Shown here: piece after piece, positions 21,461 to 31,403 of the stretch
Layout of the letters: each line of letters opens with the position of its first letter
Numbering within the stretch: the first letter of the stretch is position 1
Assembly: GCA_014871385.1 (NCBI GenBank)
Contig: CM026422.1
Span: 9,199,374 to 9,263,373, forward strand
Direction of reading: 5' to 3'
Source: Ceratodon purpureus
Lineage: Eukaryota; Streptophyta; Bryopsida; Pseudoditrichales; Ditrichaceae
Length of the DNA stretch: 64,000 nt
The notes under the pieces: model-generated
The model's database searches: none
What the model was told of the DNA's origin: nothing
Seen by the model: only the letters and a program-made list of their open reading frames with translations
Program-made: the position numbers and the translations under genes

Positions 21461-21663
21461 GTTTTGCAAAAGCTTCGATCAAGGTCACGGGCGGAAGCAT
21501 GTCCGGCATCTCCATCGATCCAAAGGCTGTCTCTGTGTATCCTGCGGTGAAGACAGGTTGCGAGTTCTCATCACAAGTACTGTCCGGGGAATACATCTTC
21601 TGGAATTCTCTTGGAAGATATCCACAAGCGGTCCCCGCACTGACTAACGAAAGACAAGGGTAG
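21461..21663 (+). pseudogene. duplicated 3' fragment of AP5M
   Basis: The frame here encodes the last 66 residues of AP-5 mu (from the SFAKASIKVTGG region to the end), matching 31201-31403 on the other strand. The 5' part of the gene is missing: the duplication starts inside the coding sequence. It has no promoter of its own in the arm and is presumably not functional. Confidence 0.88.
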
Positions 21664-22377
21664 AAGGTCAGCTGCGGATCAAAATGTAAACTTGTACTAT
21701 CATCGATCTCTATTGTCAAAATTCAGCTGTCCATTGCCACCATTCATTTCGGTTTAGGGTGTCATAAAGTGCGAGTAAGCCTTGGTGTACGTGTTGCCGA
21801 TTTACTCCCGGTACTCCAGAGGTGTCTTTGGAGGCTGCTAATTACTTGAGACTCGAGTTCCAAGTTAGGTTTCGAGGCTCTCTCTCTCTCTCTCGTTCTC
21901 GTCAAACCCAATTTTCCGAATTTTCCCAATACTTGAAAGTCACAAAAATGCTGATTCTAGTTGTGCATTAGATGAGGTTTCCTGAAGCGAGCACACTGAT
22001 TCGAATGGACCTCGGTTCACTCCCCCCCAGAGAAGTCAGAGGATTGAGAACCGTTGACGGAGTAATTTTGAGCGGCAGGAATGGCAGAATCCTCTCAGTT
22101 GAAGCAGAGAGCCGGCATGATTGCAGACCTCCATGGTTTGAAGCTGAGATATCTAAACAATACTGTAAGCATTTGTGTGGCAACACCACCATGTAATATA
22201 CATTGTTTCTGGGATTTGTTGGATGTCTGGTTGTCTCAGGGTCCCAGCACTCTGCCTGAACCCTATTTGAATGTACAGTACATCATCGCAGCATGATCTT
22301 AGCATTTTTGGCCTTGTTACAGCGAGGTTTGATGAGGTTTGATGGCGAACTTGGGAACGGGTGGTGCTCCGTGCTTT

Positions 22378-22388
22378 GTCCCATACGG
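22378..22388 (+). promoter_or_regulatory. U6 upstream sequence element (USE), left copy
   Basis: GTCCCATACGG matches the plant snRNA USE (RTCCCACATCG) at most positions and lies 56-66 bp before the RNA start. With TATAA at 22415-22419 (-29 to -25), the USE-TATA spacing of about 26 bp is the short one typical of Pol III plant snRNA promoters. The right copy is at 30476-30486 with TATAA at 30445-30449 on the minus strand. Confidence 0.8.
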
Positions 22389-22443
22389 TTTGGTGTGTTG
22401 CGATGTGTGGGGGATATAAGCCTGAACCGCCCCCTCCTCCTTC

Positions 22444-22463
22444 GTCTCTTCGGAGACATCTGA

Positions 22464-22495
<32 letters not shown>

Positions 22496-29149: not shown

Positions 29150-29497
29150 GCGAACTCAATCTTTTTTTTTTTTTTTTTTTTTGGAAGCAAATGGCAACTT
29201 TATTCCATCGCAAAATCAAACAAAGCACGGCCGCGCAACCTGACAGGACGGAACCTTGCCGGCAATACCAATTTAAAGTTTTAATTACCTGATAATACCT
29301 GTACCTAAGAATCTGTTACTACCCTGGCTAAACATATGCTAAGTCACAAATGGAGCCGCTGATAATTCCACCGAAGTCCTCGTTCATCGGAGGTAAAGAA
29401 GAGCCCGTCAAAATTCCAGGTCGCGAAGAAGGCCATGTATGTGCTCGCGATACCCTGGGGTTGGTGCTTGATACACCAGCCGCGAACTCAATCTTTT
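29150..29497 (-). mobile_element. retrocopied mRNA 3' end (poly-A, 16-bp target-site duplication)
   Basis: The 16-bp direct repeat GCGAACTCAATCTTTT occurs at 29150-29165 and 29482-29497. On the minus strand the insert between them reads as a transcript 3' end. It has a short coding tail ending in a GGIISGSICDLAYV-like peptide, a stop, a 3' UTR, an AATAAA signal, then a poly-A tract (T run 29162-29182 on the plus strand). That is the signature of LINE-machinery retroposition. It is 5'-truncated (about 316 bp). The source gene is not in this window and I do not recognise it. Confidence 0.8.
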
Positions 29498-30008
29498 GAG
29501 CCGCAAACATTCATACATTTCTCGCACTGAACAATACAATTTGGATAACTTAACATTTGAATAACTTACCATTTAGCCAAAGTGTTGTATTTGCATAGAA
29601 ATAATTTTTGAAAAAATGCATATGGATTTTATAGGAAGTTGGCATATTATGAGTAATTTCATATTGGTAGATTTTAGAATTTCCGAATGAATATATGGAT
29701 GAAAGTGCTTTTATAGGGTTAGTTGTGTAGTTGACATGAGATGCTCTAGACACACTGAAAATCTGAATTCACCAGCGCCCACTTAACACAACTACAAGTT
29801 CTCTTTCTTCTAAGCGAAACTTTAGAAGAAAGTTGAAGATTTTAATCAGACTTGCAGAAACAGCTGTTGTAGTATCCTTTCTGCTTGCTGATCATTGAAC
29901 TTACAAGTTCTCATGCGTGACAATTTGTGGCATTGTAACCCATGCAAGGGCGCTGTCTGGCCAGCCAATCCCTAGTGGGGACTTACGGTCTTTCACACTT
30001 CGAAGGCC

Positions 30009-30368
30009 GGCTCGAAGGTATAATCCAATGGCCTGGAGGAAGCTTAACCAAATGATTAACAACTAACCTCCCAGGAGAGCTCCTGAAGCAACGCAGATTT
30101 CTCTTTGGTGGGATTCATAGTACAAGAGCGTGTCTTCCAACATTTCTCATGATCTCGCAAGGGAGCTGAACTACAAAGGTATTAGAACAGTCGCCGTTGT
30201 GTGGAACCCACTAGGCCGTGAGTTAAAATAACACCTTAAAAGTTAACACCTTTCAGAGAGTAGACAGTAATTCACTTTGATTAAAATAGGGTGTGCCGTG
30301 CCCAAAATAAACGCGAAAAAAATTTGGACCATTTCTCGATTTGTGCGTGTCATCCTTGCGCAGGGGCC

Positions 30369-30400
<32 letters not shown>

Positions 30401-31403
30401 TCAGATGTCTCCGAAGAGACGAAGGAGGAGGGGGCGGTTCAGGCTTATATCCCCCACACATCGCAACACACCAAACCGTATGGGACAAAGCACGGAGCAC
30501 CACCCGTTCCCAAGTTCGCCATCAAACCTCATCAAACCTCGCTGTAACAAGGCCAAAAATGCTAAGATCATGCTGCGATGATGTACTGTACATTCAAATA
30601 GGGTTCAGGCAGAGTGCTGGGACCCTGAGACAACCAGACATCCAACAAATCCCAGAAACAATGTATATTACATGGTGGTGTTGCCACACAAATGCTTACA
30701 GTATTGTTTAGATATCTCAGCTTCAAACCATGGAGGTCTGCAATCATGCCGGCTCTCTGCTTCAACTGAGAGGATTCTGCCATTCCTGCCGCTCAAAATT
30801 ACTCCGTCAACGGTTCTCAATCCTCTGACTTCTCTGGGGGGGAGTGAACCGAGGTCCATTCGAATCAGTGTGCTCGCTTCAGGAAACCTCATCTAATGCA
30901 CAACTAGAATCAGCATTTTTGTGACTTTCAAGTATTGGGAAAATTCGGAAAATTGGGTTTGACGAGAACGAGAGAGAGAGAGAGAGCCTCGAAACCTAAC
31001 TTGGAACTCGAGTCTCAAGTAATTAGCAGCCTCCAAAGACACCTCTGGAGTACCGGGAGTAAATCGGCAACACGTACACCAAGGCTTACTCGCACTTTAT
31101 GACACCCTAAACCGAAATGAATGGTGGCAATGGACAGCTGAATTTTGACAATAGAGATCGATGATAGTACAAGTTTACATTTTGATCCGCAGCTGACCTT
31201 CTACCCTTGTCTTTCGTTAGTCAGTGCGGGGACCGCTTGTGGATATCTTCCAAGAGAATTCCAGAAGATGTATTCCCCGGACAGTACTTGTGATGAGAAC
31301 TCGCAACCTGTCTTCACCGCAGGATACACAGAGACAGCCTTTGGATCGATGGAGATGCCGGACATGCTTCCGCCCGTGACCTTGATCGAAGCTTTTGCAA
31401 AAC
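30009..31403 (-). repeat. right arm of the 1.4-kb inverted duplication
   Basis: This 1,395-bp segment is the reverse complement of 21461-22896, lacking only the 41-bp tandem unit. Here the AP5M end is continuous with the full gene, so this arm is probably the original. The inner boundary follows CTTCGAGCC; beyond it the two flanks share nothing obvious. Confidence 0.93.
30319..30420 (-). ncRNA. U6: U6 spliceosomal snRNA, right copy
   Basis: Reverse-complement twin of the U6 gene at 22444-22545, 102 nt, with the same 5' hairpin, ACAGAGA box and ISL. The minus-strand T run at about 30316-30322 forms the terminator. The USE (30476-30486) and TATAA (30445-30449) are present, so both copies look able to be transcribed. 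It lies about 780 bp downstream of the AP5M stop on the same strand. Confidence 0.97.

What the first reader, a model, noticed from the sequence alone, without database searches (positions are those of the whole stretch)
21461..31403. Near-identical inverted duplication carrying two complete U6 genes around a 7.1-kb spacer
Two 1.4-kb arms in inverse orientation differ in length by exactly one 41-bp tandem unit, and the frames I compared are identical. Each has USE, TATA, U6 and terminator. The right arm is continuous with intact AP5M; the left begins inside AP5M coding sequence, so the direction of copying can be read. Such arms can exchange by gene conversion, invert the spacer and form hairpin transcripts. 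The layout may be a recent duplication or a conversion-maintained U6 pair.
Basis: seen in the sequence. Interest (0 to 1): 0.8.

Follow-up and report, generated by a model that had tools for sequence, protein, structure and literature searches.

The report
Recent inverted duplication of U6 gene
A 1.4-kb piece of what is probably a moss chromosome, holding a gene for the splicing RNA U6, was copied backwards about 7 kb away, giving two identical U6 genes; this genome holds several other such mirror-image gene pairs, so it is a good example of a known kind of event rather than something new.

Summary
Window 21460-22896 and the reverse complement of 30009-31404 match over 1396 aligned bases with no substitution and one 41-bp gap. 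Each arm holds a full U6 gene (113.4 bits) with identical upstream elements. The left arm starts inside the last 67 codons of AP5M, intact only at the right, so copying went right to left. The 41-bp difference is best read as a unit lost later from the right arm.

It is not unique here. Of successive genes within 30 kb, 3 of 3 opposite-strand U6 pairs and 6 of 6 U1 pairs are inverted repeats (arms 0.26 to 7.5 kb). Five light-harvesting pairs have equal scores (arms not fetched). In these three families local copies split 14 opposite to 16 same-strand, so the window pair is probably one young product of orientation-blind local duplication in a moss, probably Ceratodon purpureus (inferred).

Conversion is not shown for this pair: no substitutions, sharp edges. 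It is suggested in two others (C13, C4). No background sample of the genome could be taken. New member of a kind known from nematodes; modest interest.

The parts
21460..22896 (+). left arm (the copy, by position; has two 41-bp units)
30009..31404 (-). right arm (continuous with AP5M; has one 41-bp unit)
22444..22546 (+). U6 snRNA gene, left
   Evidence: RF00026 113.4 bits
30318..30420 (-). U6 snRNA gene, right
   Evidence: RF00026 113.4 bits
22378..22386 (+). USE-like element GTCCCATAC at -66, left
   Evidence: that it is a USE rests on a recalled consensus
30478..30486 (-). USE-like element, right
22415..22418 (+). TATA at -29, left (same offset in right arm)
22603..22684 (+). two 41-bp units that differ at 4 of 41 bases
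30221..30261 (-). the single 41-bp unit of the right arm
31201..33066 (-). AP-5 complex subunit mu gene (AP5M), open throughout
   Evidence: PF00928; 87% to Physcomitrium
21460..21663 (+). copied 3' end of AP5M (last 67 codons and stop)
   Evidence: follows from the arm alignment and the ORF end
22897..30008 (.). 7112-bp spacer; ankyrin/PGG ORFs at 25034-26886 (-)

Best explanation
A young local inverted duplication. A 1.4-kb stretch running from inside the AP5M coding sequence through the U6 gene to about 450 bp past the U6 start was copied from the right locus, in inverse orientation, to a point 7.1 kb further left (shown by the anatomy), probably during break repair or template switching (inferred). 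The copy carries its own upstream elements and T run, so it should make the same U6 RNA (inferred, no expression data). After copying, the right arm lost one of two older 41-bp units, probably by recombination at the eight bases with which both units begin (inferred). The same process seems to act often in this genome, in either orientation, and leaves inverted pairs of U6, U1 and probably light-harvesting genes.
For: 0 substitutions in 1396 bp, so divergence is below about 0.2% (rule of three). Edges sharp: no residual homology in 300 bp outside either end. Left arm starts inside AP5M coding sequence. The two 41-bp units differ at 4 of 41 bases while the arms have no substitution, so the doubling should predate the copy. 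Recurrence: among successive genes within 30 kb, 3 of 3 U6 and 6 of 6 U1 opposite-strand pairs are inverted repeats. Three related U1 loci have different arm limits relative to U1 (-1005..+2770, -487..+381, -72..+2206), and their right-hand outer flanks, as far as fetched, do not match each other except for one 72% stretch that also occurs at a fourth locus. The window and C13 U6 loci share about 0.4 kb round U6, not the rest of the arms. Both favour separate events.
Against: Complete identity is also what whole-arm conversion would give. The C13 pair (6 of 7 differences in the outer 119 bp, 1673 bp clean) and the inner C4 piece (1814 of 3101 bp clean) are not what even ageing predicts, so conversion may act at some pairs. 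C13 has one unit-like stretch, so a one-unit state could be the older one. A weak U2-like pair in a perfect palindrome shows that such repeats need not hold working genes.
Confidence: 0.68

Rival explanations
1. An older inverted U6 pair whose arms are kept identical by gene conversion between arms, as proposed for Y-chromosome palindromes and nematode inverted gene pairs.
For: Differences crowded outside long clean stretches in the C13 U6 pair and the inner C4 piece, P <= 5e-5 each against even spacing; a passage of PMC3045890 speaks of a high frequency of homologous recombination in Physcomitrella.
Against: The window arms have sharp edges and no substitution, so no tract can be seen; conversion tracts should seldom reach both very ends (inference).
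Confidence: 0.22
2. Assembly artefact: one U6 locus placed twice.
For: Identity of the arms apart from one repeat unit; one weakly U2-like pair on C9 is a perfect palindrome, a form assemblers can also create (inference).
Against: Moss plants are haploid (recalled), so there is no second haplotype to misplace; the arms differ by a 41-bp unit and their flanks are unrelated; nine such snRNA pairs with different arm lengths and identities.
Confidence: 0.07
3. Copy carried by a transposable element that picked up the AP5M end and U6.
For: The stretch is cut inside a coding sequence, as captured gene pieces are.
Against: By eye the junctions of the left arm show no target-site duplication or terminal repeats; the arm has no ORF of 90 aa or more other than the AP5M end and one across U6.
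Confidence: 0.03

Closest known systems
Long near-perfect inverted repeats with convergent or divergent paralogous gene pairs in Caenorhabditis (PMC1803023; abstract and passages seen)
   Same: Inverted near-identical arms carrying a gene each, convergent or divergent; recent copy or conversion is the same question
   Different: The examples seen are protein genes with spacers of 126 and 414 bp, and other species show their age; here snRNA genes, a 7.1-kb spacer and no relative to compare
Newborn gene duplicates in C. elegans, often adjacent and inverted (one passage of PMC2728529)
   Same: Local, inverted, with one end cutting a neighbouring gene
   Different: Here 14 opposite to 16 same-strand neighbours among U6, U1 and light-harvesting genes, so no excess of inverted ones in these families
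Highly similar tandemly arrayed genes in Physcomitrella, ascribed to conversion (passage in PMC3045890, citing Lang et al. 2008, not seen)
   Same: Moss, near-identical neighbouring copies
   Different: The passage does not speak of inverted pairs or snRNA genes

Membership tests
plant U6 snRNA gene | full-length U6 covariance-model match | tested here: met
   RF00026, 1-105/105, 113.4 bits, both arms
plant U6 snRNA gene | TATA near -30 and T-run end | tested here: met
   TATA at -29, seven T, both arms
plant U6 snRNA gene | upstream sequence element (USE) | tested here: inconclusive
   GTCCCATAC at -66 in both arms resembles but does not equal the recalled consensus RTCCCACATCG; a CCCATA core stands at a like place in 16 of the 19 U6 genes printed (window pair included)
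plant U6 snRNA gene | transcription | not testable with these tools
   no RNA data
young local inverted duplication | near-zero divergence with sharp ends and one end cutting a gene | tested here: met
young local inverted duplication | empty site in a relative | not testable with these tools
   the tool holds no relatives of this genome
conversion-maintained inverted repeat | arms more alike within a species than their age allows | not testable with these tools
   no orthologous locus available
conversion-maintained inverted repeat | mosaic of clean tract and diverged edge | tested here: inconclusive
   window pair has no substitutions and sharp edges, so nothing to test; seen in the C13 pair and inner C4 piece
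transposon-carried copy | target-site duplication and terminal repeats | tested here: not met
   junctions printed, judged by eye

The most novel reading that the evidence does not exclude
In this moss, multicopy essential genes (U6, U1, light-harvesting proteins) are held as inverted pairs with up to kilobases of near-identical arms and 3-27 kb between the genes, formed again and again and then homogenised by conversion between arms, a genome-wide copy-keeping arrangement in a haploid plant.
Probability: 0.2. Interest if true: 0.65.

Novelty: new member of a known kind. Interest (0 to 1): 0.38.

Why it matters
By itself it is an ordinary young gene copy. As one of nine inverted snRNA pairs found in one moss genome it belongs to a ready set of paired loci, some clean and some mosaic, in which recent copying could be told from conversion by sequencing a few accessions. 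It also means that short reads cannot tell the two U6 genes and their promoters apart (inference from the identity of the arms).

Tried and rejected
Ancestral inverted pair shared by the window and C13 U6 loci: they share only about 0.4 kb around U6, and the translated search of the window against the 9.5-kb C13 locus found almost nothing else; not supported. U2 as a further case: none of the 22 matches of 100 bits or more has such a neighbour within 30 kb (the other 23 of 45 matches were left out of that count); of three weak equal-score opposite-strand U2-like pairs one was fetched and lies in a perfect palindrome. A global alignment profile of the arms was set aside because it forced unrelated ends together; one search uses local alignments.

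Evenness test, all results: C13 P 5e-5; inner C4 piece 5e-5; outer 4.3-kb C4 piece 0.30; a 252-bp C4 cross-match 0.018; C11 0.24; C3 15.04 Mb pair 0.05 (27 of 37 differences in the last 163 bp); C8 0.022 and 0.001 for two pieces; C7 0.001 on 258 bp; C3 14.5 Mb 5e-5; C2 second comparison (with the third, same-family copy) 5e-5; C2 pair itself no differences. I do not count C3 14.5 Mb, C8 and the C2 second comparison as mosaics, because their differences lie wholly or largely within a few dozen bases of an alignment end and may be over-extension; C7 is short. Hairpin transcripts: not testable; Pol III transcripts should stop at the T run (recalled). The ten answered paper searches (open-licence papers only, capped listings) listed no title on inverted snRNA pairs in plants.

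Full report
What is there. The window lies at C2:9199374-9263373 of a 362.5-Mb genome in 151 contigs. Two arms, 21460-22896 and the reverse complement of 30009-31404, align over 1396 bases with no substitution and one 41-bp gap. Each holds a complete U6 gene; the genes face each other across a 7112-bp spacer with ankyrin/PGG ORFs. Upstream elements are identical: GTCCCATAC at -66 and TATA at -29. A CCCATA core stands at a like place in 16 of the 19 U6 genes that one search printed, the window pair included.

Direction of copying. The right arm runs without a break into AP5M (ORF 31201-33066, minus strand), 87% identical to the Physcomitrium protein up to residue 613 of 621. The left arm holds only the last 67 codons and the stop. 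So the right locus is the source. The one difference, a 41-bp unit, points to a later change: the left arm has two units that differ from each other at 4 of 41 positions, the right has one. Since the arms have no other difference, the two-unit state should be older than the copy, and the right arm has probably lost a unit by recombination at the eight bases with which both units begin. Against this, the related C13 locus has a single unit-like stretch.

The wider pattern. The U6 search of the whole genome gave 24 matches (48 of 30530 first-look candidates were scored, so this is a lower bound). Successive genes within 30 kb form 3 opposite-strand and 3 same-strand pairs. All 3 opposite-strand pairs are inverted repeats: the window; C11, 1439 bp with 3 differences; C13, about 1908 bp with 7 differences. 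U1 gave 42 matches (42 of 6515 candidates scored, so again a lower bound), with 6 opposite-strand and 7 same-strand pairs; all 6 opposite-strand pairs are inverted repeats: 3776 bp 99.9%, 870 bp 94.8%, 1806 plus 398 bp 99.8 and 99.5%, 1733 bp 100%, 4350 plus 3101 bp 95.5 and 99.4%, and 258 bp 96.1%. Light-harvesting genes (PF00504; the 32 of 85 matches above 130 bits were used) gave 5 opposite and 6 same-strand pairs, the 5 opposite ones with equal scores; their arms were not fetched. Together 14 opposite and 16 same-strand pairs: orientation looks random in these three families. Equal scores are commoner in opposite-strand pairs (11 of 14) than in same-strand pairs (6 of 16), but scores are a poor measure of identity. 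U2 genes of 100 bits or more (22 of 45 matches) form no such pairs.

Young or converted. If an inverted pair only ages, differences should be spread evenly. In the C13 pair 6 of 7 differences lie in the outer 119 bp and 1673 bp are clean; in the inner C4 piece 1814 of 3101 bp are clean; in 20,000 even placings none reached either value. These two look partly homogenised. The C11 pair is not uneven (P 0.24), nor is the outer C4 piece (P 0.30); all results are listed under Tried and rejected. The window pair has no substitution to test. Its edges stop sharply: 300 bp outside each end are no more alike than shuffles. With 0 of 1396 the upper 95% bound on divergence is about 0.2%. I read it as a young copy.

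Separate events. Three related U1 loci (C3 14.5 Mb, C3 15.04 Mb, C8 14.88 Mb) have arms ending at different distances from U1, and the right-hand copies sit in unrelated outer surroundings, as far as fetched, except for a 72% stretch also present at another locus. The window and C13 U6 loci share about 0.3-0.4 kb at 84-91% identity, not the rest of the arms. This favours repeated inverted copying over one ancient pair.

Not specific to working snRNA genes. One pair of weak U2-like matches on C9 (60.4 bits) lies in a perfect palindrome with arms of at least 1.9 kb and a 122-bp centre, so such repeats also hold sequence that need not be a working gene.

Organism. AP5M is 93% identical to a JGI protein without organism name and 87% to Physcomitrium patens; contig C6 reaches beyond 89.9 Mb while the eleven other large contigs seen are 16-29 Mb. 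A review gives Ceratodon purpureus 358 Mb and sex chromosomes of about 30% of the genome (PMC13120521, passages). So a moss, probably C. purpureus; this is inferred.

Compared with the literature. Nematode inverted gene pairs (PMC1803023, abstract and passages) and inverted newborn duplicates (PMC2728529, passages) are the same kind. That multicopy snRNA genes evolve in concert is stated in PMC4291461 (passages).

Limits. No random sample of the genome, no relatives, no reads, no RNA data; U4, U5 and the arm itself could not be searched.

Noticed in passing
L036:1861-9341 and L037:1202-8671 (C4 6.06-6.08 Mb): A block of about 7.5 kb with two U1 genes and, on the left only in the U2 list, a U2 gene is mirrored at 95.5 and 99.4%, the innermost part nearly clean.
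   Followed up: partly
L047 (C9 8.504-8.508 Mb): Perfect palindrome, arms at least 1.9 kb and a centre of about 0.12 kb, with weak U2-like matches in both arms; real or an assembly effect.
   Followed up: partly
G000 C4:2597460-2630518: Two light-harvesting genes 2826 bp apart are mirrored by two more with the same spacing 27 kb away, equal scores.
   Followed up: no
L045:2418-8990 and L046:2429-9001: Small contigs C125 and C15 share 6573 identical bases in inverse orientation, each with a U1 gene; possible redundant contigs.
   Followed up: no
window 36707-37031 and 45004-45321: Direct repeat, 94% identical over 325 bp.
   Followed up: no
window 59315-59389: tRNA-Val (AAC) gene.
   Followed up: no
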